Positions 25,490 to 40,372 of a stretch of 64,000 nt of DNA are shown piece after piece. Position 1 is the first letter of the stretch; every line of letters begins with the position of its first letter. Made by a program: the position numbers and the translations under genes. This DNA is from Actinomycetota bacterium. Its GTDB lineage: Bacteria > Actinomycetota > Actinomycetes > Streptosporangiales > Streptosporangiaceae. The notes beneath the pieces are model-generated. The model did not search any database. It was given only the letters and a program-made list of their open reading frames with translations, and had not been told where the DNA came from. The DNA lies in contig JAJPIV010000134.1 of assembly GCA_021324595.1 (NCBI GenBank), positions 1-64,000 of the forward strand, given 5' to 3'.

Positions 25490-25558
25490 CCCCGTACAAA
25501 GGCTGCTGTGCGTCGCGACAGGCAGCTCCGGCAAGTCCACGGTGAGGTGAGGCGCGGG

Positions 25559-26416
25559 ATGTCGATCGAGGCCGGCCCGGGAGAGAGCCAGGCGAGCCCG
25601 CCGCCCGCCGGCGCAGTCGCGGGCGGCCGGGCGGCCCCGCCCGGCGAGGCCCGGCACGATGGCGCGGTGGCGCTGGCGACCGTAAACCTGACGATCAGCT
25701 TCGGGCCACGGCCGGTGCTCACCGCCGTGAACGCGAGGATCGAGCGCGGGGCGGTCACCGCCCTCATCGGACCGACGGGCTCGGGCAAGACCACGCTGCT
25801 GCGGACCTTCAACCGGATGAACGACAAGGTGTCCGGCTACCGGCACGCGGGCGATGTCCTGCTCGACGGGAGGAGCATCTGGCACCCGGGCGTGGAGCTG
25901 ATGGCGCTGCGGCGCAAGGTGGGCATGCTGTTCCAGCGGCCCAACCCGTTCCCCATGTCGATCATCGACAACGTGCTCGCCGGGGTGCGGGCGCACCGGC
26001 TGGCGAGCAGGAGCGCCATGAGCGCGATCGCCCGGGATCGCCTGGCCGAGGTGGGCCTGTGGGACGCGGTCCGCGACCGGCTCAAGGACTCGCCGTTCCG
26101 CCTGTCCGGCGGCCAGCAGCAGCTGCTCTGCCTGGCCAGGGCGCTGGCGGTCGGGCCCGAGGTGCTGCTCCTCGACGAGCCGACGTCCTCGCTCGACCCG
26201 GTGGCCACCGAGTCGATCGAGGCGCTGATCCGGCGGCTGACGCCGGCCCTGACCGTGGTGATCGTCACCCACAACCTGGCCCAGGCGAGCCGGGTCGCCG
26301 ACCGGATCATCTTCCTCAACGACGGCCGTCTCGTGGAGCACGGGAGGACCAGGCAGGTGTTCGAGAACCCGGCGCAGCAGGAGACCGCCCGCTACGTGAG
26401 CGGGCGCTTCGGCTGA
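25559..26416 (+). CDS. pstB: Phosphate ABC transporter ATP-binding protein (PstB/PhoT-like)
   Basis: Walker A GPTGSGKTT; RTFNRMND; LSGGQQQLLCLARAL; LLLDEPTSSLDP. An in-frame GTG at 25508 is an alternative start. Confidence 0.9.
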   Translation: MSIEAGPGESQASPPPAGAVAGGRAAPPGEARHDGAVALATVNLTISFGPRPVLTAVNARIERGAVTALIGPTGSGKTTLLRTFNRMNDKVSGYRHAGDVLLDGRSIWHPGVELMALRRKVGMLFQRPNPFPMSIIDNVLAGVRAHRLASRSAMSAIARDRLAEVGLWDAVRDRLKDSPFRLSGGQQQLLCLARALAVGPEVLLLDEPTSSLDPVATESIEALIRRLTPALTVVIVTHNLAQASRVADRIIFLNDGRLVEHGRTRQVFENPAQQETARYVSGRFG

Positions 26417-26426
26417 CCACCGACCC

Positions 26427-26540
26427 CCCGTGCGGGAGGACGGCCTTCCTCCCGCACGGGAGCGAGAACCGCGCGTTCCGCGCGGCCTCATCGCACGCGA
26501 CCGCGTGCGAGCCGTGTACCGCATGCGTCAGCATGCACAA
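26427..26540 (+). promoter_or_regulatory. Hairpin array in pstB-pstS intergenic region
   Basis: CCCGTGCGGGAGGA/TCCTCCCGCACGGG (14 bp), CCGCGCG/CGCGCGG (7 bp), TCGCACGCG/CGCGTGCGA (9 bp), GCATGC-GTCA-GCATGC. Confidence 0.7.
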
Positions 26541-26558
26541 CCGAAGGAGTATTCCCCG

Positions 26559-27692
26559 GTGGCCATACCAATCCGAATCGCGGGCATGGCGGCTGCCCTC
26601 GTTCCCCTGGCCGTGCTGGCGGCCGGCTGCGGCGGCTCGAACCCCTCATCGCCGAGCTCGGGAGGATCGGCGGCCAAGATGGTCGGCCCGGCCCTGCCCT
26701 CGGCCCCGGCCAAGGCCGCCGCGTCCGTCACCGAGACCGGCAGCACCCTGCTGTTCCCGCTGATCAGCGCCTGGGCCTCCGACTACCAGAAGCTGTACCC
26801 GCAGGTCACGATCACCACGGGCGCCACCGGCTCGGGCACCGGCATCGCCGATGCCACGACCGGGACCGTGGACATCGGCGCGTCCGATGCCTACCTGTCA
26901 CCGACGGTGAAGGCCCAGGCGCCGACGCTGGAGAACATCGCCCTGGCGATCTCGGCGCAGGCGATCAACTACAACCTGCCCGGGGTGCGGAGCCTCAGGC
27001 TCGACGGGGCGGTGCTGGCCGGCATGTACACCGGGAAGATCACCCGGTGGAACGACCCGGCCATCAAGGCGCTCAACCCCGGGGTGTCGCTCCCGGCCGC
27101 CAAGGTGGTGCCCCTGCACCGCGCGGACAGCTCGGGGGACACCTTCCTGTTCACCTCCTACCTGAGCGCGCAGGACCCGTCCGGCTGGCCGTCGTCGAAC
27201 GTCGGGACCACGGTCAGCTTCCCGGCCGTGCCGGGGGCGCTGGGCGAGCAGGGCAACGGCGGCATGGTGCAGGGCTGCGCGGCGACCCCCGGCTGCGTGG
27301 CCTACATCGGCGTCAGCTACGGCTCCCAGGCGCGGGCCGCCGGGCTGGGCGAGGCGGAGATCAAGAACGGATCCGGCAGGTTCGTGCTGCCGGTCCCGGC
27401 CACGATCGCCGCGGGCGCGGCGGGCTTCATCGCCAAGACGCCCGCCAACGAGACGATCTCGATGATCAACGGCCCGGCCCCGGACGGGTACCCGATCATC
27501 AACTACGAGTACGCGATCGTGAACACCAAGCAGCCCGACGGCACGGTGGCCGAGGACATCCGCGCGTTCCTGCACTGGGCGGTGCACGCCGGCCAGAGCG
27601 CCTCGGCCTACCTCGACAAGGTGAACTTCCAGCCGCTGCCGGCCAGCGTGGTCCGGCTCTCCGACGCGCAGATCGCCAAGATCGGCGCCTGA
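26559..27692 (+). CDS. pstS: Phosphate-binding lipoprotein PstS
   Basis: Lipobox [65 protein letters not shown]. Confidence 0.93.
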
Positions 27693-27696
27693 GCCG

Positions 27697-28779
27697 ATGG
27701 CGTCGCCCGCACGCGCGCTGCGGCCGGGCGGGGGAGCGGGCGCCGGCCCGCTCCCCCGGCGGGCCCGCGCCCGGCTCCGCGCGGGGATCCGGGAGGGAAC
27801 CCACATCCGCTGGGCCGGCGCGGCCGGCGCGGCCGTCCCGGTCCTGGCGCTCGGCTTCATCCTGCTCGTCCTCATCGTCAAGGCATGGCCGGCGATCAGG
27901 TACAACGGGGTGGGCTTCTTCACCGGCACCACCTGGGCCGAGGGAGACCTGTACGGCCAGCCGGTCCGCCGCGCCGGGGTGCTGGTCCCCGCGGGGGCCA
28001 GGTACGGGGCGCTGCCGGCGATCATCGGAACGCTCGGCACGTCGGCGATCGCGCTGGTCATCGGCGTGCCGGTGGCGATCGGGACCGCGCTGGTCATCGT
28101 GGAGCGGCTGCCCAGGCGCCTCGCCGGCCTCGTCGGGGGCTTCCTGGAGTTCCTGGCCGGCATCCCCAGCGTCGTGGTCGGCCTGTGGGGCGCCGTGACC
28201 TTCGGGCCGTTCATCGCCCGCCACGTCGCTCCCCTGGTCGCCCGCCACATGCCCGACGTGCCGGTGCTCAGCTACTTCCGCGGCAGCACCGGCAACGGCC
28301 AGGGGATGCTGGTCTCCGGGCTGGTGCTCGCGATCATGATCATCCCGATCGTCGCGGCGACCACCCGCGACCTGATCCGGCAGGTGCCGATCCTGCCCAG
28401 GGAGGGCGCGGTGGCGCTCGGGATGTCCGAGTGGGAGTGCGCCAGGCGGGTCACGCTGCCCTGGGTGGGCAGCGGCATCGCGGGCGCGGTCGTCCTCGGG
28501 CTCGGCCGCGCCCTCGGCGAGACCATGGCGGTGGCCATGACCTGCGGGGTCGTGCTCAGCACGGTTCCCGGCAACATCTACCAGACCATGACCACGATCG
28601 CGGCCACGGTGGTGCAGACCGTGGACACCGCGTTCCTGGACGGGACCGGGTTCGCGCTCCGCGCGCTCGCCGAGCTGTGCCTGGTGCTCATGGTCATCAC
28701 GCTGACGGCGAACGTGGTGGCGCGGCTGCTGGTCCGGCGGGTGTCGGCGATCGCGCTGCCGGTGGGCCGCGGGCTGTGA
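27697..28779 (+). CDS. pstC: Phosphate ABC transporter permease PstC
   Basis: [61 protein letters not shown]. Confidence 0.93.
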
Positions 28780-28803
28780 CGGGCGGGAAGCGAGGGATGA
28801 CGG

Positions 28804-29733
28804 ATGAGCGGGGCGCTGCCAGCCGGTGACGCGAGGATGCCGGGGCCTCCCGGCGCTGCCCGGCGGGGCGAGGCTGCCTGGCCCGCCGTGCCGCTGCGGC
28901 GCAAGGCGGTCAACGCCGCCTTCTGGGCCGCATGCTTCGCGTGCCTGGCCCTGGTCGCCATCCCCACCGTCTGGATGGCCGGCGGCGTGATCGCCAGGGC
29001 GGTCCCGAACTTCCGGTGGTCGGTGCTGACCACGCGCACCGACCAGCTGTCCGGCGGGCTGGAGAACGCGATCCTCGGCACGCTGGCGATCACGGCGGGA
29101 GTCGTCCTCGTGGCCGGCACGGTCAGCGTGCTGACCGGCATGTACCTGGCCGAGTTCGCGGCCGGCCGCCGGCGGGCGCTGCTGCGCGGCGGCTACGAGG
29201 TCCTGGCCGGCATCCCCTCCGTAGTGCTCGGCTACGTGGGCCTGGTCGCGCTCGCGGTCGGGCTCGGCTGGAAGTTCTCGCTGCTGTCGGCGGTCCTGGT
29301 GGTCTCCGTGCTGGCGGTCCCCTACATCACCAAATCGACCGAGACGGCGCTGGCCCAGGTGCCCACCTCCTACCGGGAGGGCGCGGAGGCCCTCGGGATC
29401 CCCCCGAGCTGGGCGCTCCGGAAGATCGTGCTGAGATCGGCCCTGCCCGGGATCATCACCGGGATCCTGGTCGCGGTCGCGATCTCGGCCGGGGAGACCG
29501 CGCCGCTGCTGTACACGGCCGGGTGGTCGGACGCGAACCCGTCGCTCGCCCTGATCCACGAGCCGGTCGGGTACCTCACCTACCCGGTGTGGGCGTTCGC
29601 GCCGATCAACCAGCCCGTCCGCAGCGCCAACATCCTGTCCTACGACGCCGCGCTGATCCTGCTCGCGTTCGTGCTGCTGCTGATCGTCGCCGGGCGCGTG
29701 ATCGTGTGGCTCTCCCGGCGCAATGCCGCGTGA
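28804..29733 (+). CDS. pstA: Phosphate ABC transporter permease PstA
   Basis: [64 protein letters not shown]. Confidence 0.93.
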
Positions 29734-29756
29734 GCCGTCGAGGCGGAGGGCATCCA

Positions 29757-30563
29757 GTGGCAGGCTCGGGCGACGACGCGGCCGGTGCCGCGGGAATCCT
29801 GGCCGACCGGCTCGCCGCCTCGCTCGTCCAGCACGAGCCGGGATGGCGGCTGCCGAGGCCGAGCACCCTCGCCCGCCGCTATCACGTGCCGCCTGCCCAG
29901 GTGGAGCAGGCGGTCAGCGATCTGGCCGCCCGTGACCTGGTCCGCATGCTGCCGGACGGCCAGGCGTACCGGGCGAGCCCGGCCCACTACCTGATCCCCG
30001 TGGCGGGAGTGCCGCGCCTGTCCGCCCTGGCCGATCCCATGGGCAGCGAGGTCGCCTGCGGCGGCAGGAGGGTGACCTGGCGGCAGGCGCCGGATGGGAT
30101 CGGCCGGGCGCTCGGGGTGCGGGCCACCGAGCAGGTCTGCGCGGTCCGGTGTCACTGGAGGCTGAACGGCAAGCCGGCCGCGATCTCGACCACGTACCTC
30201 ACCGAGCGCGCGGCGAGGCTGCTCGGCGACGTGTTCGGCCAGCCGGCCGGCGGCGGGCCGCCCGCCTGCGGGGCGCCCCCGGGCGGAGTGCCCGGGGTAC
30301 CGGCTCCGCTCGGCATCCCCGCCGCGCTCCACCTGGAGACGCACCCGCCCCCCTCGTCGCTGGCGCGGTGGCTGCGGCTCGCCTCCGGGCAGCCCGCCGC
30401 GATGATCACGGTGCGCTATGACGAGGCGGAATCGGGCCGGCCGGCCGCCCTGACGGTGACCGCGCTGCGCACCGAGCTGTTCCGGATCGTCATCGAGACG
30501 GGCGGGGGCGTCCCCGGGGGGTTCCCGGCCGCGGACAGGGTCCCTGCGGCTGGCACCGGGTGA
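29757..30563 (+). CDS. GntR-like transcriptional regulator with UTRA-like C-terminus
   Basis: wHTH LPRPSTLARRYHVPPAQVEQAVSDLAARDLVRMLPDGQAYRAS; effector-domain-like RCHWRLNGKPAAISTTYL. Confidence 0.65.
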   Translation: MAGSGDDAAGAAGILADRLAASLVQHEPGWRLPRPSTLARRYHVPPAQVEQAVSDLAARDLVRMLPDGQAYRASPAHYLIPVAGVPRLSALADPMGSEVACGGRRVTWRQAPDGIGRALGVRATEQVCAVRCHWRLNGKPAAISTTYLTERAARLLGDVFGQPAGGGPPACGAPPGGVPGVPAPLGIPAALHLETHPPPSSLARWLRLASGQPAAMITVRYDEAESGRPAALTVTALRTELFRIVIETGGGVPGGFPAADRVPAAGTG

Positions 30564-30635: not shown

Positions 30636-32138
30636 GTGCGGCCGTTGTCGAACCTCCCGCGCCCGGTCGGCGGGCGCCCGGCAGCGCCGGATCGGGCCGC
30701 CCGGCGTCCGGGTGCCTTAGCGGCGGCCCTCGCGACCGCGCTCGTGGCCGCGCAGTTCCTGCTCGCCCCGGTGACGCTTGGCCTGGCTCTGGGCTTCGTG
30801 CTGGCGGGAAGGCTGACGCGCTGGCATCCAGCGTGGCTGTCGCTGCCTGCGGCGGCCGGGGTCGCATGGACGGCTGCCGCAGGGTTCCGGCCGTCCCTGA
30901 CCGGCTACCTCGCGGTCGCGTTCCACCTGGCCGCGGCGTTCGGCCGCGGGGATCCGATGGCGGGCGCCCCGGCCGGGCTGCGCGGCGCGCTCGCCGGCTG
31001 GCCGGCCCGGCTCGCCGCGCAGTGCCCGGTCGCGGTCACTGCCGCCGCGGCCGAGGCCGCGGTCGCGTGCCGCATCGGGCCGCTCGCCGGCCACGCCGGG
31101 CCGGGTTCCCACAGGAGCGGCCTGCTGGCAGCGGCCCGGCGGTGGTACGTGACCGCGGCGATCGCCCGCGGCGAGGTGGCGACCGCCGCGGGCGCGTGCG
31201 TCGGCGTCATCAGGCGCACCGGAAGGCGGGCAGAGATTACCTGGCGGGAGGCCGCCGGCGGGGTGCTGTGCGCCGGCCATGATCCGGATGCCGTCAGCGC
31301 GACGGCCCTGGAGCTGGTCACCGCTGCGATCAGCCACCGCAAGGCGGTCGTGATCATCGATTCCGCAGGCGGGTCACCCGCGCCGGACGGCGGGCATGGG
31401 CCGGGCGGCGGGCATGGGCACGATGCCTGGCGGTGGCCGGCCGGCCGGCTGCGGGCCGCCGTCGGCTCGGCGTGCGAAGCGGCGGGCCTGGACCCGCCCT
31501 GGCCCGGCGGCCCGGGCGGCTGGTGCGAGGCGCTCCGCGTCGGCCTGGCCGGGGCCGGGCCGGCCTGGCCGGACGCCGCCAGCCCCCGGGACCGCGCGGC
31601 CCGCCCGCCCGGTGGCGCTGGTCACCGTCCTGCCCGGGCCGCGCGCCTGCAGGAAGCGCTCGTCCGGCGCGAGGTGCTGATGGCCTGCGGTGGCACGGCG
31701 GGCCGCGGCGCCCGCCAGGCGATCGCCCGCGCGGCCGTCGCGGACCTGACCGCGGCCCTCGCGGCGATGGCCGACTGGCTCGGGCCGGACGGCCCGCCGG
31801 GCACGGGCGCCGGGCCGCAGGCGCGCGTCCCGGTCGCCGACTGCCTGATCTGGGTGGCGGGCTGCGAGGCCGTCGAGGGCGAGTGCCTCGCGGAGCTGCT
31901 GCGGGTCGCGGCACGGGCAGGTGCCAGCGTGCTGCTGAGCACGGCCGACGGGCCGACGGCCGCCTGGCTGGCCGACCAGGTCAACGTCACGGTGCTGCGC
32001 GGCCCGGCCCCGGCGGGGCTCGGCCGTCCCCGGGCCGGCGGCGACCCGCAGGCTTCGCCTTCGCCGCAGGCCGCCCGCCTCCGCATAGCGGTCCGCGCGC
32101 CGCGCCGCGTCCTGTCCGGATGCGAGGCGGTCCGGTGA
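30636..32138 (+). CDS. Membrane protein with degenerate P-loop ATPase-like domain, unknown function
   Basis: Two N-terminal hydrophobic segments; AGGVLCAGHDPDAVSATALELVTAAISHRKAVVIID (P-loop-like, no Lys) and DCLIWVAGCEAVEGECLAELLRVAARAGASVLLST (Walker-B/sensor-like). Confidence 0.6.
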   Translation: MRPLSNLPRPVGGRPAAPDRAARRPGALAAALATALVAAQFLLAPVTLGLALGFVLAGRLTRWHPAWLSLPAAAGVAWTAAAGFRPSLTGYLAVAFHLAAAFGRGDPMAGAPAGLRGALAGWPARLAAQCPVAVTAAAAEAAVACRIGPLAGHAGPGSHRSGLLAAARRWYVTAAIARGEVATAAGACVGVIRRTGRRAEITWREAAGGVLCAGHDPDAVSATALELVTAAISHRKAVVIIDSAGGSPAPDGGHGPGGGHGHDAWRWPAGRLRAAVGSACEAAGLDPPWPGGPGGWCEALRVGLAGAGPAWPDAASPRDRAARPPGGAGHRPARAARLQEALVRREVLMACGGTAGRGARQAIARAAVADLTAALAAMADWLGPDGPPGTGAGPQARVPVADCLIWVAGCEAVEGECLAELLRVAARAGASVLLSTADGPTAAWLADQVNVTVLRGPAPAGLGRPRAGGDPQASPSPQAARLRIAVRAPRRVLSGCEAVR

Positions 32139-34195
32139 CCGCCGGGCGACCCGGACGGGGCGGGGCCTGGGCCGGGTGGGACGGGAACGGGGATGGACGG
32201 GACGGGGACCGGCCCGGCCCGGTCTGCCTGGGATGGCGGTGCGCCCCCACCCGCGCCGGCCCGGATCCCCCACCCGTCAGGCCGGCCGCCCCCCCGGCAC
32301 CTGGCCTCGACCCGGGCTGGGTGACCGCCCAGAGGCGGATCGCCGCGATCGAGTCCCGCCCGGCCAGGGCCGGCGCCGCAGCCTGCGCGATCGCGGGAGC
32401 GCTGGCCGGCGCCGGCTGGCTCGCCGGCCTGGCCGGCCCGGAGCTGGCCGGGTGCGCGGGCCTGCCGATCGCCGCTGGTGCGCTCGCCAGCGCCCGCTCG
32501 GCCTGGCGCGCCCGGCGGCGCCTGGCCCGCGCGATCACGGCCGAGCGGCACCGGACCGAGGCCATCGCCGCCGCGCAGTCCCGCTGGCTGGCCGCGCGGC
32601 AGCGCGAGCACGCTGCCGCGTACCGTGCCTGGCAGCGCCGCACGGTCCGGGCCGGGCGGCAGGCCGGCTGGTCGGCGGTCTGGCTCCCGGCCGCCATCGA
32701 CCGGATCGACGTCGCGGGCGGCACCCTGGCCGGCTGGTCGGCGCTGCTCACCACGGTCGCGGCGCCACTGCTGAGCGGCGGGGGCGAGGTGAGCGTCGTC
32801 GATCTCACCGAGGGCGCGGCAGCGGGGGACCTGATCGGGCTCGCCCGCGCCTGCGGGCTGCGGCCGCTGGTCTGGGTGCTCCCCGCCGACCTGCCCAGGC
32901 TGGACCTGGGAGCCGGCCTGAGTGCCGGGGCGCTGGCGGACGTGCTCGCCCTCGCCGCCGGCGCGGCCGGCGCCGGCGGCGAGCAGCCGGGGCATGGCGA
33001 CCACGGGCCGGCCGGCGATCCGGCCGCCGACTGCGCGCTGCTGGAGCGGGTGCTCGGATTGCTCGGCCCCGCGCCGCGGATGGCGCGGGTGACGGCCGCC
33101 CTGCGGGTGCTCGGCCAGGTGGGCGACCCGCGTACCGACCTGGCTGCCGGGCTGCTGTCGGCCGAGGAGGTGGACCGGCTGACGGCCATGTTCGGCCGGG
33201 GACCGGAGCGGATCGTCATCGAGCGAGCGTGGGCGCTGGAGTCCAGGCTGCGCCGGCTCGACCGGCTGGGCATGGCACCGGCCCCGCTGCCGCCCAGCGG
33301 CCTCCGGGTGGTGGCGCTCGACCGCCGCGCGGAGATCACCGGCAACCGCGTGCTCGGCACGTACGTGATCGCCGCGCTGACCCACCTGCTCCGCCAGGCG
33401 CCGGCGGGACGGCCATGGCGCCACGTGCTCTGCGTGCTGGGCGCCGAGCGGATCGGCGGCGGCGCGCTCGACCGGCTGACCGACGCCTGCGCCGCATCGG
33501 TGACCGGGCTGGTCCTCGCCTACCGCGCGGTCCCGCCCGCCGTCAGGGAGCGCCTCGGCCGGGGGAACGCCGCGATCGCGTTCATGCGGCTCGGCAATGG
33601 CGACGAGGCGCGGGCCGCCGCAGAGCTGATCGGGACCGAGCACCGCTTCGTCGTCGGCCAGCTCACCGACACGATAGGCACGTCGCTCACCGACACGTGG
33701 GGGTCCACCTACACCAGCACGGTGGGAACGGCGGACTCGGCGAGCGATTCGTACTCCCTGAGCGACACGCGCGGCGACACCCGGGGACGCGGGCGCAGCC
33801 AGCCGGCCGCCGGCGGGCCGTTCGGCGACCTCAGCAGGTCGCTGAGCCGCGACGTCAGCCGCTCGCTGGCGCGGTCATGGTCGCGGTCGCTGAGCGAGGG
33901 CATCAGTGCGGGCACCTCGTGGGGCGCCAGCCTGTCGCGCGCGGCCGGCGGGAGCGCGTCGGCGGGGCGCACCGCGCAGCGGTCCAGGGAGTTCCTGGTG
34001 GAGCCGGGCGAGCTGCAGCGGCTGCCGCCGACCGCGGCGATCGTGAGCTACCCGGCGCGGGCCGGCCGCGAAGTGCTGCTCGTCGACGCCAACCCGGCCA
34101 TCCTCACGCTCCCGGGGGCCGGCCGGCGCCGGCCGGCGGACCGGGAGCCCGGCCCGGGCCCGGGAGAATGGCGCCATGAGACGACCATTCCGTGA
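32135..34195 (+). CDS. Degenerate TraG/VirD4-like ATPase-fold membrane protein with Ser-rich region, unknown function
   Basis: GTGA overlap with preceding gene; IDVAGGTLAGWSALLTTVAAPLLSGGGEVSVVDLTEG (Trp in P-loop Lys position); AAIAFMRLGNGDEARAAAELIGTEHRFVVGQLTDTIGTS; Ser/Arg repeats; REFLVEPGELQRLPPTAAIV tail. Confidence 0.6.
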   Translation: MTAGRPGRGGAWAGWDGNGDGRDGDRPGPVCLGWRCAPTRAGPDPPPVRPAAPPAPGLDPGWVTAQRRIAAIESRPARAGAAACAIAGALAGAGWLAGLAGPELAGCAGLPIAAGALASARSAWRARRRLARAITAERHRTEAIAAAQSRWLAARQREHAAAYRAWQRRTVRAGRQAGWSAVWLPAAIDRIDVAGGTLAGWSALLTTVAAPLLSGGGEVSVVDLTEGAAAGDLIGLARACGLRPLVWVLPADLPRLDLGAGLSAGALADVLALAAGAAGAGGEQPGHGDHGPAGDPAADCALLERVLGLLGPAPRMARVTAALRVLGQVGDPRTDLAAGLLSAEEVDRLTAMFGRGPERIVIERAWALESRLRRLDRLGMAPAPLPPSGLRVVALDRRAEITGNRVLGTYVIAALTHLLRQAPAGRPWRHVLCVLGAERIGGGALDRLTDACAASVTGLVLAYRAVPPAVRERLGRGNAAIAFMRLGNGDEARAAAELIGTEHRFVVGQLTDTIGTSLTDTWGSTYTSTVGTADSASDSYSLSDTRGDTRGRGRSQPAAGGPFGDLSRSLSRDVSRSLARSWSRSLSEGISAGTSWGASLSRAAGGSASAGRTAQRSREFLVEPGELQRLPPTAAIVSYPARAGREVLLVDANPAILTLPGAGRRRPADREPGPGPGEWRHETTIP

Positions 34196-35009
34196 GGTCG
34201 ACGTGTTCTGCTCCGAGCCGTTCACCGGGAACCCGGTCGCGGTGGTCCTCGACGCGGCGGGGCTGACCACCGAGCAGATGCGCCGCGTCGCGCTCTGGGC
34301 GAACCTGTCCGAGACAACCTTCGTCCTCCCGGCGAGCCGGCCCGGGGCCGACTACCGGGTGCGGATCTTCACCCCGGCCGGGGAGCTCCCGTTCGCCGGC
34401 CACCCCACCCTCGGCACCTGCCACGCCTGGCTGGAGGCCGGCAACTCGCCCGCCGCCGGGGACGGGGCCGTCGTGCAAGAGTGCGCGGCGGGCCTGGTGC
34501 CGGTCAGGCGCACCGAGGCCGGGCTTGCCTTCGCGGCGCCGCCGCTGGTCCGTTCCGGTCCCGTGGATGAGCCGCTCGCCGAGCAGGTCGCCGCGGAGCT
34601 CGGCGTGAGCCGGGCCGGCATCGCCGGCATCCAGTGGGCGGACAACGGGCCAGGCTGGATCGCGGTGCTGCTGCCGGACGCCGGCGCCGTGCTCGCGCTG
34701 CGGCCCGGCCGGATCAGCCACGACATCGGCGTCGCCGGCCTGTACCCGCCGGGCTCGGAGTGCGCCGCGGAGGTGCGCTGCTTCTTCCCGGTGAACGGGA
34801 TGGCGGTCGAGGATCCGGTCACCGGGAGCTTCAACGCCTCGCTCGCCCAGTGGCTGTGCGGCGCGGGCCTGCTGGCCGCCCCTTACGTGGCCAGCCAGGG
34901 CACGGCGATCGGCCGCCGCGGCCGGGTCCACGTGAGCCGCGGCCAGGACGGGGCGTTCTGGATCGGCGGCGCGGCCGTGACCCGGGTGAGCGGGGAGATC
35001 GACGCCTAG
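34176..35009 (+). CDS. PhzF family isomerase/epimerase-like protein
   Basis: REVDVFCSEPFTGNPVAVVLDAAGLTTEQMRRVALWANLSETTFVLP; FTPAGELPFAGHPTLGTCHAW; VEDPVTGSFNASLAQWL; 20-bp overlap with upstream gene. Confidence 0.92.
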   Translation: MRRPFREVDVFCSEPFTGNPVAVVLDAAGLTTEQMRRVALWANLSETTFVLPASRPGADYRVRIFTPAGELPFAGHPTLGTCHAWLEAGNSPAAGDGAVVQECAAGLVPVRRTEAGLAFAAPPLVRSGPVDEPLAEQVAAELGVSRAGIAGIQWADNGPGWIAVLLPDAGAVLALRPGRISHDIGVAGLYPPGSECAAEVRCFFPVNGMAVEDPVTGSFNASLAQWLCGAGLLAAPYVASQGTAIGRRGRVHVSRGQDGAFWIGGAAVTRVSGEIDA

Positions 35010-35068
35010 CGGCGCCGATCCGCGGCAATGGGTGGCAGGCGGCCCGGGCCGCTTGATATGCACGCATC

Positions 35069-38000
35069 ATGCCCAGCGGTCAGGAGATCGCCGCCGGCGG
35101 CGCGCCCTGGTACCGGGTCGTCGCGATCCCGGACGCGGCGCACGGCGGGACGCCGGATCGCGACTACGCCGCCGTGCTCCCGGCGGCGCTCGACGCGGCG
35201 CGGCGGCAGCAGCCGCTCGTGGTCGGCTGGTTCTCCCGGGGCGGCGGAGCGCCGCTTGAGCTGGTCACCAACGCCGGGCCGCTGCCGTCCGCCCCGGAAG
35301 GGGCCGGCGGGCCAGGGCCGGCCGGGGCGGATGCGGGCGGTCAGTGCGAGCTGCTCTTCCCCTGGGGGGCGCGCGGCGTGCCGCTCACCGACAGCCTCCT
35401 CGCCGACCTGGACCGCCTGGTCTGGGCGCCCTGCCCCGGCCGCCTGGCCCCGCCGGGCGAGGCGGAGGCCGCGCGCGGCCCGGCATGGCCGTCCGCCGGC
35501 CTGGGCGTGGCCAGCCTCGGGGCGGGCCTTCGGATGACCGCGGCGGCCGGCCTGGGCGGCGCATCGCCCAGCCTGTTCGAGTCCGCGCTCACCACGCTGA
35601 TGGCCAGGCCGTTCGGCTGGCTCGTGGTCGCCGAGCCCACCGACGCGATCGGGGCTGAGATCGCCGAGCTGCGCACCAGGCTCAACGCGGTCCGCCGGTT
35701 CGACGAGGAGCGTTCCCGCCTGGAGGCCGACCGGGCGATCCGGCGGCTGGCCGAGCTCGACGCGTTCCGCGAGGCGGGCCTGTGGAACGTGCGCGTCCTG
35801 GTCGGAGCCGGGGACGCCGGGCAGCTGGCCGCCATCGGCCCGATCCTGGTCGGGTCGGCCGACCTCGGCGCCCACCCCTACCGCCTGCACGGCCCCGAGC
35901 GGGCCAGGGACCTGGCCGACGCCCTGGCGGCGACGAGCGCCGGGCACCCCGACGGGCCCGCGGTCCCGTTCGCCGCGACCGCGGGAGTCCTCGCGCCGCT
36001 GGCTGGCCTGCCGCGCCGGGAGGTCCCCGGCGTCAGGGTGCTCGACCTCGGCTACTTCGATGTCACCGCCGAGCCGGCCGGCGAGGACGCGGTCCACCTC
36101 GGCGCGATACTGGACGGGCACGACCGGGTGGTCGGCGCGCTCAGCGTCCCGCTTGCCACGCTGAACCGGCACGCCCTGGTCACCGGCGCCACCGGCGCGG
36201 GCAAGTCGCAGACCGTGCGCCAGCTGCTCGGCCAGGTCACGGCCGCCGGCATCCCGTGGCTGGTCATCGAGCCGGTGAAGTCGGAGTACGCGGCGATGGC
36301 AGGCACGGTCGCCGCGAGCGGCGGTGACCTCATCGTGGTCAACCCCGCCGACCCTCAGGCGGTGCCGCTGGCCGTCAACCCGCTGGCCCCCGAGCCCGGC
36401 TATCCGGTCCAGGCGCACATCGACATGGTGCGCGCGCTGTTCCTCGCCGCGTTCGACGCGCGCGAGCCGTTCCCGCAGATCGTCTCGCAGGCGCTGCAGC
36501 GTGCCTACGAGTCATGCGGCTGGGATCCGGTCACCGGCGCCGGGCGGCCGGGCACGGCCGTGCCGCCGGCGGTCCCCACGCTGGCCAGGCTCCAGGCGGC
36601 GGCGACGGAGGTGATCGAGGACGTCGGCTACGGCCGCGAGCTCCAGGCGGACGTCCGGGGCTTCGTGGAGGTCCGGCTGCGGTCCCTGCGGACCGGCTCG
36701 GCCGGGCGCTTCTTCGAGGGCGGCCATCCGGCCGACATCGGCGAGCTGCTGCGGCGGAACGTGGTGCTGGCCATCGAGGACGTCGCCAACGACGAGGACA
36801 AGGCGTTCCTCATCGGCACCCTGATCATCAGGATCGTCGAGCACCTGCGGCTGCGCGCCAGGGCAGGCGCCCCGGGCGGCCGTGACCCGCTCGGCCCGGG
36901 CGGCCAGGCAGGTGCGGGAGGCCCGGGCACCCCGCCCGGCGCGGGCGGGCCGGGTGCCGCGGCCGGCGCGGAGGCGCCGCTGCGCCACGTGATGGTCATC
37001 GAGGAGGCGCACCGGCTGCTGCGGGCCGGCCGGGAGGGCGCGGGCGCGCACGCCGTCGAGCTGTTCGCCAGCCTGCTCGCCGAGATCCGCGCCTACGGCG
37101 AGGGCCTGGTGATCGCCGAGCAGATCCCGGCCAAGCTCGTTCCCGACGTGGTGAAGAACACGGCCCTGAAGATCGTGCACCGGCTGCCCGCGCAGGATGA
37201 CCGGGCACTGGTGGGCGCGACCATGAACCTCGACGCGGAGCAGTCCAGGCAGGTCGTGTCGTTCCCGCCGGGGGTGGCGGCCGTGTTCGCGGACGGCATG
37301 GACCGGCCGCTGCGCGTCCGGGTCCCGCTGTGCCGCCGCGCGGTGGCCGGCCGGGCCGCCGCGCGGCCGGCCGGGCCGCCGCTGGCCGGCCGCCGGTCGC
37401 CGGCCTGCGGCCCGCGGTGCGCCGGCCGCGCCTGCACGCTCCGGGAGCTGCGCTCGGCCGACCTGCTCGCCGAGTCCGGCGAGAGCGCGTGGCTGCGGGT
37501 CTGGGCCGAGGCCGCGGTGCTCGCGTTCCTCACCAACTCGCCACTCCCCGTCGTCCCGGTCGCGCTGCGGGACTGGTGGTCGCGAGCCGACGAGCGGCTG
37601 CGGGAGTGCGCGCTGGCCACCGTCGTGGAACGCGCCGTCGCGGCCCGGGCGAGCGCGGTCCGCTCCTGCTTCGACCCCGCGGACCTGGTGGCGGTCGCCG
37701 GCCAGACCGCCCGGGCGATCCTGTCCGGCGGCAAGGGCGCGGGAACGCGGCCCGGTCCCGGCTGGGTCATCCCTCAGCTTCAGTGGCTCCACGAGCTGGA
37801 GCGCGTGCTTCCGCTCTCCGGGCCGTCGCCCGACCCGTTCGAGCTGGCGCTGCCGCTGGAGTTCGAGCTGCCCGGCCTGCCCGACCAGCCGGACACCAAG
37901 GTGGGCCAGCGGATCAGCGCCCTGCGCAGGCACCCGCTGTCGATGGAGCTCGACGGCAACCGGCTGCCGGCCTGGACGGCGCTGCTCGGGGAGGACGACC

Positions 38001-38197
38001 AGCGGGGCTTCTCCGCCGACCTGGCGCTGCTGGCGGTCGGCTCGAGCTACCGCGGGCAGCTGCTCCAGGCCGCGGGGGAGATGGGGGTGGCCGGGTGGCT
38101 GGAACCGGTGCTGTCCTGGCCCCGCCGGTTTATCGTGGGCGGTGACGACGAGCAGGTCGCGGCGGCGCGGGAGCGGCGCCAGCCGGTAGCCGGATAG
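35069..38197 (+). CDS. HerA/VirB4-like ATP-binding protein (DUF87-type)
   Basis: Walker A VTGATGAGKSQTVRQLL; IEPVKSEYAAM; Walker B RHVMVIEEAHRLL; IAEQIPAKLVPDVVKNTALKIVHRL; CGPRCAGRAC cluster. Confidence 0.85.
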   Translation: MPSGQEIAAGGAPWYRVVAIPDAAHGGTPDRDYAAVLPAALDAARRQQPLVVGWFSRGGGAPLELVTNAGPLPSAPEGAGGPGPAGADAGGQCELLFPWGARGVPLTDSLLADLDRLVWAPCPGRLAPPGEAEAARGPAWPSAGLGVASLGAGLRMTAAAGLGGASPSLFESALTTLMARPFGWLVVAEPTDAIGAEIAELRTRLNAVRRFDEERSRLEADRAIRRLAELDAFREAGLWNVRVLVGAGDAGQLAAIGPILVGSADLGAHPYRLHGPERARDLADALAATSAGHPDGPAVPFAATAGVLAPLAGLPRREVPGVRVLDLGYFDVTAEPAGEDAVHLGAILDGHDRVVGALSVPLATLNRHALVTGATGAGKSQTVRQLLGQVTAAGIPWLVIEPVKSEYAAMAGTVAASGGDLIVVNPADPQAVPLAVNPLAPEPGYPVQAHIDMVRALFLAAFDAREPFPQIVSQALQRAYESCGWDPVTGAGRPGTAVPPAVPTLARLQAAATEVIEDVGYGRELQADVRGFVEVRLRSLRTGSAGRFFEGGHPADIGELLRRNVVLAIEDVANDEDKAFLIGTLIIRIVEHLRLRARAGAPGGRDPLGPGGQAGAGGPGTPPGAGGPGAAAGAEAPLRHVMVIEEAHRLLRAGREGAGAHAVELFASLLAEIRAYGEGLVIAEQIPAKLVPDVVKNTALKIVHRLPAQDDRALVGATMNLDAEQSRQVVSFPPGVAAVFADGMDRPLRVRVPLCRRAVAGRAAARPAGPPLAGRRSPACGPRCAGRACTLRELRSADLLAESGESAWLRVWAEAAVLAFLTNSPLPVVPVALRDWWSRADERLRECALATVVERAVAARASAVRSCFDPADLVAVAGQTARAILSGGKGAGTRPGPGWVIPQLQWLHELERVLPLSGPSPDPFELALPLEFELPGLPDQPDTKVGQRISALRRHPLSMELDGNRLPAWTALLGEDDQRGFSADLALLAVGSSYRGQLLQAAGEMGVAGWLEPVLSWPRRFIVGGDDEQVAAARERRQPVAG

Positions 38198-38208: not shown

Positions 38209-39447
38209 ATGGGCAAGCTACCTCTTCGGGCGCGGGTCGCCACCACCCTCGGCGAGGCGGCCGGGCGGGTGTCGCGCCTGACCGGGCGCGGCGACGGGTC
38301 GGTGATCGGCGGCGTGGTGGGGCTGCGCGTGGCCCCCGACCTGCTCAGGCAGCTCGCCGCCGGTCGGCAGGTCGTCCTGGTCACCGGGACGAACGGCAAG
38401 ACGACGACGACCCGGCTGGTGACCGCGGCGCTCGGCTCGCTCGGCCAGGAGGTCGCGACCAACGCCTTCGGCGCGAACATGGAGAGCGGCCTGGTCGCCG
38501 CGCTTGCCGCGGCGCCCGATGCGCCCTACGCGGTGCTCGAGGTGGACGAGCGGTACCTGCCCGCGATGATCCGGGCGACCCGCCCGCGGGTGGTGGTCCT
38601 GCTCAACCTCAGCCGGGACCAGATGGACCGGGCAGCCGAGATCTGGATGGTGGCCAGGATGTGGCGGGAGGCGCTCGCCGCCGCCCCGGACGTCCGCGTG
38701 GTCGCGAACGCCGACGATCCGCTGGTCGCCTGGGCCGCGGGGGCGGCCGCGCAGGCGAGCTGGGTGGCCGCCGGGCAACGCTGGCACGAGGACTCCTGGT
38801 GCTGCCCGGAGTGCGGTGCCCACCTGCGCCGGGACGAGCTCGGCTGGCGCTGCCCCGAATGTGGCCTGGCCCGGCCGCCGGCGCGGTGGGTGCTCGACGG
38901 CACCGCGGTGATCGACTCGGCCGGGGCCGTCCACGAGCTCGCGCTGACCCTGCCCGGCCGGGCGAACCGCTCGAACGCCGTCATGGCGCTGGCGGTCGCC
39001 AGCATCTTCGGCGCCGACGTCGGCCAGGCGCTGCCGTTCCTGCGCTCGGTGACCTCGGTGGCCGGGCGCTACACGACCGTGGAGCGGCGCGGCCGCTCTC
39101 TGCGGCTGCTGCTGGCCAAGAACCCGGCCGGCTGGCTCGAGGCGTTCGACGTGCTCGCCGGGGACGGGCGGCCGGTGGTGCTGGCGATCAACGCCCAGGT
39201 GCCGGATGGCAAGGACACGTCCTGGCTGTGGGACGTCGACTACCGGGTGCTCAGCGGCCGCCGGGTGCTCATCACCGGAGAGCGCCGCACCGACCTGGCG
39301 GTCCGGCTCGAGGCGGCGCAGGTGCCGTTCGAGGTGGCCGGCGACATCGACGCGGCGATCGACCGGGTGCCGCCCGGCGAGCTTGACGTGATCGCCAACT
39401 ACACCGCGTTCCAGCAGATCCGGGCTGCCCTGGGGCGGACGGCATGA
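38209..39447 (+). CDS. murT: Lipid II isoglutaminyl synthase subunit MurT
   Basis: Mur ligase VTGTNGKTTTTRLVTAAL; Cys4 module CCPECGAHLRRDELGWRCPECG; followed by gatD. Confidence 0.92.
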   Translation: MGKLPLRARVATTLGEAAGRVSRLTGRGDGSVIGGVVGLRVAPDLLRQLAAGRQVVLVTGTNGKTTTTRLVTAALGSLGQEVATNAFGANMESGLVAALAAAPDAPYAVLEVDERYLPAMIRATRPRVVVLLNLSRDQMDRAAEIWMVARMWREALAAAPDVRVVANADDPLVAWAAGAAAQASWVAAGQRWHEDSWCCPECGAHLRRDELGWRCPECGLARPPARWVLDGTAVIDSAGAVHELALTLPGRANRSNAVMALAVASIFGADVGQALPFLRSVTSVAGRYTTVERRGRSLRLLLAKNPAGWLEAFDVLAGDGRPVVLAINAQVPDGKDTSWLWDVDYRVLSGRRVLITGERRTDLAVRLEAAQVPFEVAGDIDAAIDRVPPGELDVIANYTAFQQIRAALGRTA

Positions 39448-39463: not shown

Positions 39464-40372
39464 ATGACATCGCCAGCCCAGGACGATCCCCGGCGCGCCG
39501 GGTGGCCCGCGTTGCAGCGCCATGCGGCGCGCTCCCCTGCGGGAAGCTACGTCCCGCCGCCCCCGCCAGGGCGGGCGCCCTCCGGGCCGGCCGGGGACGC
39601 CGGCGATGACCTGACCAGGCCGATCCCGCGGCTTGACCTGCCGGGGCCGGCCGGCGGATCAGAGTCGGCGCTGCGGCTCATCTGGATCTACCCGGACCTG
39701 CTCAGCACCTACGGCGACCGCGGGAACCTCATCGTGCTCGAGCGCCGCGCCAGGCTGCGCGGCCTGGCGGTGGAGGCGGTGGAGCTGAACTCGGACCAGC
39801 CGGTGCCCCGGGAAGGCGACGTCTACCTGCTCGGCGGCGGCGAGGATCTCCCTCAGGTGCTCGCCGCGCGGCGGCTGCGGGCCGACGGCGGCCTCGCCGC
39901 CGCGGCGGAGCGGGGCGCCGTCGTGTTCGCCGTGTGCGCCGGCTACCAGCTGATCGGCGCGGTGTTCGGAGGGGCCGGCGGCGAGCCCGTCGAGGGGCTG
40001 GGCCTGCTGGACGTCCGCAGCGGGCGGGGAGAGCGGCGCGGCGTCGGCGAGGTGATCGCCGACGCCGATCCGGCGCTGGGCCTGGAGACGCTCACCGGGT
40101 TCGAGAACCACCAGGGCGTGACCGCGCCGGGCCCGGGTGCCAGGCCCCTGGCCCGGGTGCGCGTGGGCGTCGGCAACGGCGACGGGACGGAGGGCGCCTA
40201 CGCCGGCAAGATCCTCGGCACCTACCTGCACGGCCCCGCGCTGGTCCGCAACCCCGGGCTCGCCGACCTGCTGCTGACCTGGGCGGCCGGCCCGCTGGCG
40301 CCGCTGGCCGAGGCGGACGAGGCGTGGACCAGGCAGTTGCGCGCCGAGCGGCTCGCCGCCGTGCCGGCGTGA
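39464..40372 (+). CDS. gatD: Lipid II isoglutaminyl synthase glutaminase subunit GatD
   Basis: LIWIYPDLLSTYGDRGNLIVLERRA; VYLLGGGEDLPQ; VFAVCAGYQLIG; GFENHQGVT. Confidence 0.92.
   Translation: MTSPAQDDPRRAGWPALQRHAARSPAGSYVPPPPPGRAPSGPAGDAGDDLTRPIPRLDLPGPAGGSESALRLIWIYPDLLSTYGDRGNLIVLERRARLRGLAVEAVELNSDQPVPREGDVYLLGGGEDLPQVLAARRLRADGGLAAAAERGAVVFAVCAGYQLIGAVFGGAGGEPVEGLGLLDVRSGRGERRGVGEVIADADPALGLETLTGFENHQGVTAPGPGARPLARVRVGVGNGDGTEGAYAGKILGTYLHGPALVRNPGLADLLLTWAAGPLAPLAEADEAWTRQLRAERLAAVPA

What the first reader, a model, noticed from the sequence alone, without database searches (positions are those of the whole stretch)
30636..38197. Candidate undescribed system: intact HerA/VirB4-like ATPase with two degenerate ATPase-fold membrane partners and a PhzF enzyme in one gene cluster
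Seen: four co-directional genes, 30636-32138, 32135-34195 (GTGA overlap), 34176-35009 (20-bp overlap, PhzF) and 35069-38197 (59-bp gap). Only the last has clear Walker A (GATGAGKS) and Walker B (VMVIEEAH) motifs. The first two carry N-terminal hydrophobic segments and recognisable P-loop/Walker-B positions in which key residues are replaced. No relaxase, VirB or T4SS channel gene is nearby, so it does not look like a conjugation module. Inference: a membrane-associated HerA-type motor with pseudo-ATPase scaffolds, possibly envelope- or DNA-related, coupled to a metabolite isomerase.
Basis: partly seen in the sequence, partly recalled or inferred. Interest (0 to 1): 0.8.

Follow-up and report, generated by a model that had tools for sequence, protein, structure and literature searches.

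The report
Two-ATPase membrane motor linked to toxins
The gene cluster belongs to an apparently undescribed family of bacterial membrane machines, in which a working HerA-type motor protein is paired with a partner that looks like a motor but has lost its ATP-binding lysine; relatives in other actinomycetes sit directly in front of changeable toxin and immunity genes, so the machine probably exports proteins, although the copy in this window has no toxin beside it.

Summary
The four genes are real, at the stated coordinates; murT and gatD follow directly. The core is a pair. P2 (32135-34195) is an N-terminally membrane-anchored protein whose predicted fold matches TrwB/VirD4 (E 4e-6), yet none of 143 distinct homologues has the Walker-A lysine (137 have Trp). 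P4 (35069-38197) is an intact HerA/DUF87-type ATPase (Walker A in 104/107). P1 is a third, eroded P-loop-like membrane protein of restricted distribution; PhzF is a near-genus-level passenger.

In 395 sampled genomes of the class, all 43 strong P4 hits also had P2. In the order Streptosporangiales the pair sits beside murT-gatD. In Streptomyces, Nocardia and one unnamed family, accessory copies form P2-P4-toxin-immunity operons: ADP-ribosyltransferase (twice), calpain-like protease (twice), barnase-like RNase plus Barstar, RelA/SpoT-like, lipase-like plus ankyrin. Two toxins share an N-terminus but differ at the C-terminus.

Best reading: an undescribed membrane translocation motor for polymorphic toxins. 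Secretion itself is inferred; the window's own cargo is unknown. Main rivals: an intracellular conflict/defence module, or an envelope function beside lipid II amidation.

The parts
30636..32138 (+). P1: 500-aa membrane protein with eroded P-loop-like domain; restricted distribution (14 of 80 named loci)
31275..31304 (+). P1 decayed Walker-A position (GHDPDAVSAT); GAADSGKT in relative L062
32135..34195 (+). P2: 686-aa N-terminal TM-anchored VirD4/TrwB-fold pseudo-ATPase with Ser-rich C-terminal stretch; core component
32717..32740 (+). P2 pseudo-Walker A GGTLAGWS (Lys replaced by Trp)
33425..33448 (+). P2 pseudo-Walker B (VLCVLGAE; acidic pair replaced by G-A)
34176..35009 (+). PhzF-family enzyme; near-genus-restricted passenger inside the operon
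35069..38197 (+). P4: 1042-aa HerA/DUF87-type ATPase; core motor; C-terminal Cys motif (C780, C784, C789, C847)
36185..36208 (+). P4 Walker A GATGAGKS
36989..37012 (+). P4 Walker B VMVIEEAH
38209..39447 (+). murT-like lipid II isoglutaminyl synthase subunit, 11 bp after P4; conserved neighbour
39464..40372 (+). gatD-like glutamine amidotransferase; conserved neighbour

Best explanation
P2 and P4 form a two-component membrane translocation motor: P2 is a membrane-anchored VirD4-like pseudo-ATPase that probably serves as docking platform or substrate receptor, and P4 is the ATP-hydrolysing HerA-like pump that works beneath it. Accessory copies of the pair export polymorphic toxins that have an acidic/proline-rich, probably disordered N-terminus and no signal peptide, with the toxin and its immunity gene encoded directly after P4. 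The window holds the chromosomal copy that is conserved beside murT-gatD, with an extra eroded ATPase-like membrane protein (P1); its cargo is unknown. Shown: gene order, conservation, motif loss in P2 and retention in P4, predicted fold of P2, toxin-immunity linkage in relatives. Inferred: physical P2-P4 complex, protein export, role of the acidic N-terminus, and that the window copy does the same job.
For: P2 fold = TrwB coupling protein, Foldseek E 3.8e-6, prob 1.0. Conserved pseudo-Walker A in P2 and intact P4. All 43 strong P4 genomes are P2+ (hypergeometric 7e-39, phylogeny not corrected). P2-P4-ADP-ribosyltransferase-hypothetical operon on S. clavuligerus pSCL4 with 4-bp overlap between P4 and toxin; P2-P4-RelA/SpoT-like protein in S. 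antimycoticus and P2-P4-lipase-like-ankyrin in Nocardia; ADP-ribosyltransferase, and calpain-like protease plus DUF6406, in two Streptomycetaceae genomes; RNase plus Barstar. Same toxin N-terminus with different C-termini in L181 and L198. Effectors lack TM segments and strongly hydrophobic N-termini.
Against: No toxin-immunity gene was found beside the window copy or the murT-linked copies examined. No pore, channel or pilus component is conserved with the pair. Many P2 orthologues occur without any detectable P4. Linkage to polymorphic toxins does not by itself prove export through P2/P4. No experiment.
Confidence: 0.5

Rival explanations
1. Intracellular conflict or anti-phage module: P4 is a HerA-type sensor/motor that unleashes the linked toxin inside its own cell, and the 'immunity' gene is an antitoxin.
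For: HerA ATPases act in defence systems with effectors; P4 matches PADLOC HerA and mad8 models weakly. Effectors have no signal peptide. In L204-L206 and L217 the pair sits with other membrane proteins bearing a repeated SISGSQIAVGG-like tail.
Against: The commonest copy is syntenic beside murT-gatD across the family rather than in variable islands. P2 is a TM-anchored VirD4-fold protein. Shared N-terminus with swapped C-terminal toxins plus Barstar-type immunity is the polymorphic-toxin pattern.
Confidence: 0.22
2. Vertically inherited cell-envelope function: the murT-linked copy moves or organises an envelope component, and toxin-linked copies are later recruitments.
For: 62 of 80 named loci have MurT near P2; P4 ends 11 bp before murT in the window; P2 persists next to murT in genomes without P4.
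Against: MurT-GatD is a cytosolic enzyme pair that needs no motor (established knowledge); the pair also occurs away from murT in accessory loci; shared neighbourhood may be mere chromosomal linkage.
Confidence: 0.2
3. DNA translocase or conjugation-related motor (HerA/VirD4-like DNA pump).
For: P4 and P2 belong by sequence or fold to DNA-pump families; in genus g52 genomes P2 sits beside a T4SS-like cluster.
Against: No relaxase or mating-pair genes seen in the window or beside most pairs; recurrent toxin cargo instead.
Confidence: 0.08

Closest known systems
VirD4/TrwB type IV coupling proteins
   Same: P2: N-terminal TM anchor plus predicted RecA-like domain closest to TrwB
   Different: P2 lacks the Walker-A lysine in every homologue and the Walker-B acidic pair in nearly all; no T4SS channel genes with it; Ser-rich C-terminal stretch
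HerA/DUF87 ATPases (including HerA defence proteins and mad8)
   Same: P4: Walker A, Walker B and HerA_C/DUF87 matches
   Different: Long extra N- and C-terminal regions with a conserved Cys motif; co-occurs with P2; no NurA/SIR2/DUF4297 partner seen; matches to HerA equivalogs are far below curated cut-offs
Type VII secretion ATPase EccC/EssC
   Same: Active plus degenerate FtsK/HerA-type domains and export of polymorphic toxins (PMC3482391); a T7SS with its own EccC-sized ATPase is inserted beside P2-P4 in Actinoallomurus
   Different: Domains on separate proteins; pair lacks EccB/EccD/mycosin, and the toxins in the other loci have no WXG match; inactive domain is GGTxxGW
Polymorphic toxin systems catalogued in Zhang et al. 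2012 (PMC3482391)
   Same: Common N-terminus, exchangeable C-terminal toxin, adjacent immunity gene
   Different: The passages read name T7SS and T4SS FtsK/HerA ATPases as export motors; no P2/P4-type pair was found in them

Membership tests
VirD4/TrwB T4CP | N-terminal TM anchor plus TrwB-like RecA fold | tested here: met
   (fold is a prediction)
VirD4/TrwB T4CP | Active Walker A and B | tested here: not met
VirD4/TrwB T4CP | Encoded with VirB4 and channel components | tested here: not met
   window and most relatives lack them; T4SS-like neighbours only in genus g52
HerA/DUF87 ATPase (superfamily) | Walker A, Walker B and DUF87/HerA_C match above gathering score in P4 | tested here: met
HerA proper / HerA defence system | Equivalog score or nuclease/SIR2/DUF4297 partner | tested here: not met
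   scores far below cut-offs; no such partner
Type VII secretion system | EccB, EccC, EccD, mycosin and WXG100 in the locus | tested here: not met
   not found around the pair in the window; present only as an insertion in Actinoallomurus
Polymorphic toxin system | Shared N-terminus with exchangeable C-terminal toxin and linked immunity | tested here: inconclusive
   met in relatives, not in the window itself
Secretion system | Demonstrated export of cargo | not testable with these tools
   needs experiment

The most novel reading that the evidence does not exclude
P2 and P4 are the defining pair of a previously undescribed actinomycete protein-export system: an active HerA-like pump coupled to a membrane VirD4-like pseudo-ATPase that delivers acidic-tailed polymorphic toxins, with a chromosomal copy fixed beside the lipid II amidation genes in Streptosporangiales.
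Probability: 0.4. Interest if true: 0.85.

Novelty: new variant of a known kind. Interest (0 to 1): 0.68.

Why it matters
Actinomycetes are major competitors in soil, yet known protein-weapon export in them is essentially Sec, Tat, T7SS and contractile injection. A small two-protein motor tied to exchangeable toxins would add a delivery route that can be tested at once in S. clavuligerus. It also gives an unusually clean case of an ATPase-fold protein kept for a long time without its catalytic lysine, present in every sampled genome that has its active cousin.

Tried and rejected
Profile-profile comparison of P1, P2 and P4 found no significant similarity among them, and profile searches of PDB sequences with P1 or P2 gave nothing; only the predicted structure of P2 worked. 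The P1 model is too poor to assign a fold. Whole-P4 protein searches of relatives failed three times and one Streptomycetaceae search failed; a smaller one found P4 in 4 of 81 genomes. PhzF as a functional part was rejected on distribution. The idea that P2/P4 replaces EccC in the Actinoallomurus T7SS was rejected because a 1322-aa EccC-like ORF and an EccD-like ORF lie in the same cluster (these two identified by eye). A T4SS reading was rejected for lack of channel genes outside genus g52. Literature searches found no description of the pair; most subscription papers, and Iyer et al. 2004, are not held.

Full report
What is there. P4 has intact Walker A and B motifs and matches HerA_C and DUF87; PhzF is unambiguous; P1 and P2 match no family. 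Directly after P4 come murT (11 bp) and gatD (16 bp); upstream lie pstB-pstS-pstC-pstA and a GntR/UTRA regulator. The window appears to be a Streptosporangiaceae-type metagenome-assembled genome: the nearest named P2 loci are from Streptosporangiaceae/Streptosporangiales MAGs.

Which genes belong together. Relatives of the same family keep P2, P4, murT and gatD in order. Among the 80 best named loci found with the P2 profile, P4 is detected in 69, murT in 62, P1 in 14 and PhzF in 3; some loci are cut by contig ends. PhzF occurs in the window's genus, including L224, and in L064. So the conserved unit is P2-P4; P1 is an optional third member; PhzF is a passenger.

Degenerate ATPases. Of 143 distinct P2 sequences none has lysine at the Walker-A position: 137 have Trp and 5 Arg, inside GG[T]xxGW; the Walker-B acidic pair is G-A in nearly all. 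P4 keeps GATGxGKS in 104 of 107 distinct sequences. One paralogue next to P2 in G017 has lost its Walker motifs and about half its length. AlphaFold2 of P2 (18-sequence alignment, mean pLDDT 77.5, pTM 0.69) is closest to the conjugative coupling protein TrwB (E 3.8e-6, probability 1.0), followed by a Legionella coupling ATPase, HerA, TdpAB and VirB4. P2 has one or two N-terminal hydrophobic segments in all relatives checked; P4 has none at its N-terminus. P1 gives only a low-confidence model with weak P-loop matches, but relative L062 retains GAADSGKT where the window has GHDPDAVSAT, which supports an eroded P-loop origin.

Co-occurrence. In 395 genomes sampled from the class, 71 had P2 and 45 had a P4 match; the 43 strong P4 genomes are all P2-positive. 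The hypergeometric probability, 7e-39, ignores shared ancestry and is not a formal test. In that sample only two or three candidates per genome were scored, so absences were checked again: 24 genomes (23 with a P2 hit; G022 had none) stayed P4-negative with most or all candidates scored, whereas 13 of 13 other genomes checked had a P4, sometimes away from P2. P2 therefore also exists without P4, in a diverged form, beside murT in the cases examined.

Toxin linkage. Outside the murT locus the pair is accessory and repeatedly precedes toxin-immunity genes. Streptomyces clavuligerus pSCL4 carries P2-P4-ADP-ribosyltransferase-hypothetical, the toxin start overlapping the P4 stop by 4 bp. S. antimycoticus has P2-P4-(664-aa protein with a sub-threshold RelA/SpoT match)-94 aa-HD protein. 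A Nocardia plasmid has P2-P4-(725-aa protein with a GHSLGAG lipase-like motif, seen by eye)-ankyrin protein. A named Streptomyces plasmid has a P4 remnant before a calpain-like protein with the same MSELY start. In family f19, L181 has P4-RNase-Barstar (RNase match sub-threshold, Barstar 3e-18) and L198 has P4 followed by a protein with a near-identical N-terminus but another C-terminus. Most effectors have an acidic or proline-rich N-terminal half, and those tested lack TM segments or strongly hydrophobic N-termini. This is the organisation that defines polymorphic toxins (PMC3482391).

Other contexts. In Actinoallomurus soli a complete-looking T7SS (EccB, WXG100 pair and subtilase by Pfam; EccC- and EccD-like ORFs by eye) lies next to P2, and a ~2500-aa WXG100_2 protein lies between P2 and P4. 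Four other loci have tandem ~150-aa paralogues after P4. L204-L206 and L217 have a membrane protein and a small protein with glycine-rich tail motifs.

Interpretation. A membrane VirD4-fold protein that has lost the usual ATP-binding residues, present in every sampled genome that has the active HerA-type pump and, with it, repeatedly linked to exchangeable non-Sec toxins, is best read as part of a protein-export motor. That P2 and P4 touch each other, that they move protein, and that the murT-linked copy in this window does the same, are inferences. An intracellular conflict role and an envelope role remain open. No description of the pair was found in the searchable open literature, which does not cover most subscription journals.

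Noticed in passing
L087 with L217 and L234 (Actinoallomurus soli): A complete-looking T7SS is inserted in the conserved P2-P4 neighbourhood, with a ~2500-aa WXG100_2 protein between P2 and P4.
   Followed up: partly
L185:8342-9293, L186:17023-17980, L218:6862-7771, L223:12447-13400: Tandem pairs of ~150-aa paralogous proteins of unknown family follow P4 in four loci.
   Followed up: partly
L204:7432-9294, L205:5876-8063, L206:6447-8616, L217:7892-10074: A ~600-aa membrane protein, in most cases with a ~115-aa protein, beside P2-P4; both carry a SISGSQIAVGG-like tail (a GPINTGSGTQDNR variant in L217).
   Followed up: no
L168:1876-9870 and L171:2089-10096: In genus g52 a diverged P2 without P4 lies convergent to a T4SS-like cluster (small two-TM protein, VirB6-like, SCO6880-like proteins, by eye).
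   Followed up: no
L169, L170, L181, L182, L192, L198: Endonuclease V (PF04493 confirmed in L181), in several of these loci with a MORN-like small protein, recurs near or between P2 and P4 in family f19.
   Followed up: no
L233:6518-8059: A Zeta-toxin domain is fused to a remnant of P4 on a Streptomyces plasmid.
   Followed up: no
L044:11071-12678: A P4 paralogue beside P2 and murT that has lost its Walker motifs; the same genome has intact P4 copies elsewhere.
   Followed up: partly
window 35069-38197 (residues 780-847 of P4): Nearly invariant Cys motif (C780, C784, C789, C847) after the ATPase domain, possibly a zinc site.
   Followed up: no
window 25508-30563: pst genes in the order B-S-C-A followed by a PhnF-like GntR/UTRA regulator; listed ORF 28932-30563 overlaps pstA, so its true start is probably near 29.7 kb.
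   Followed up: no
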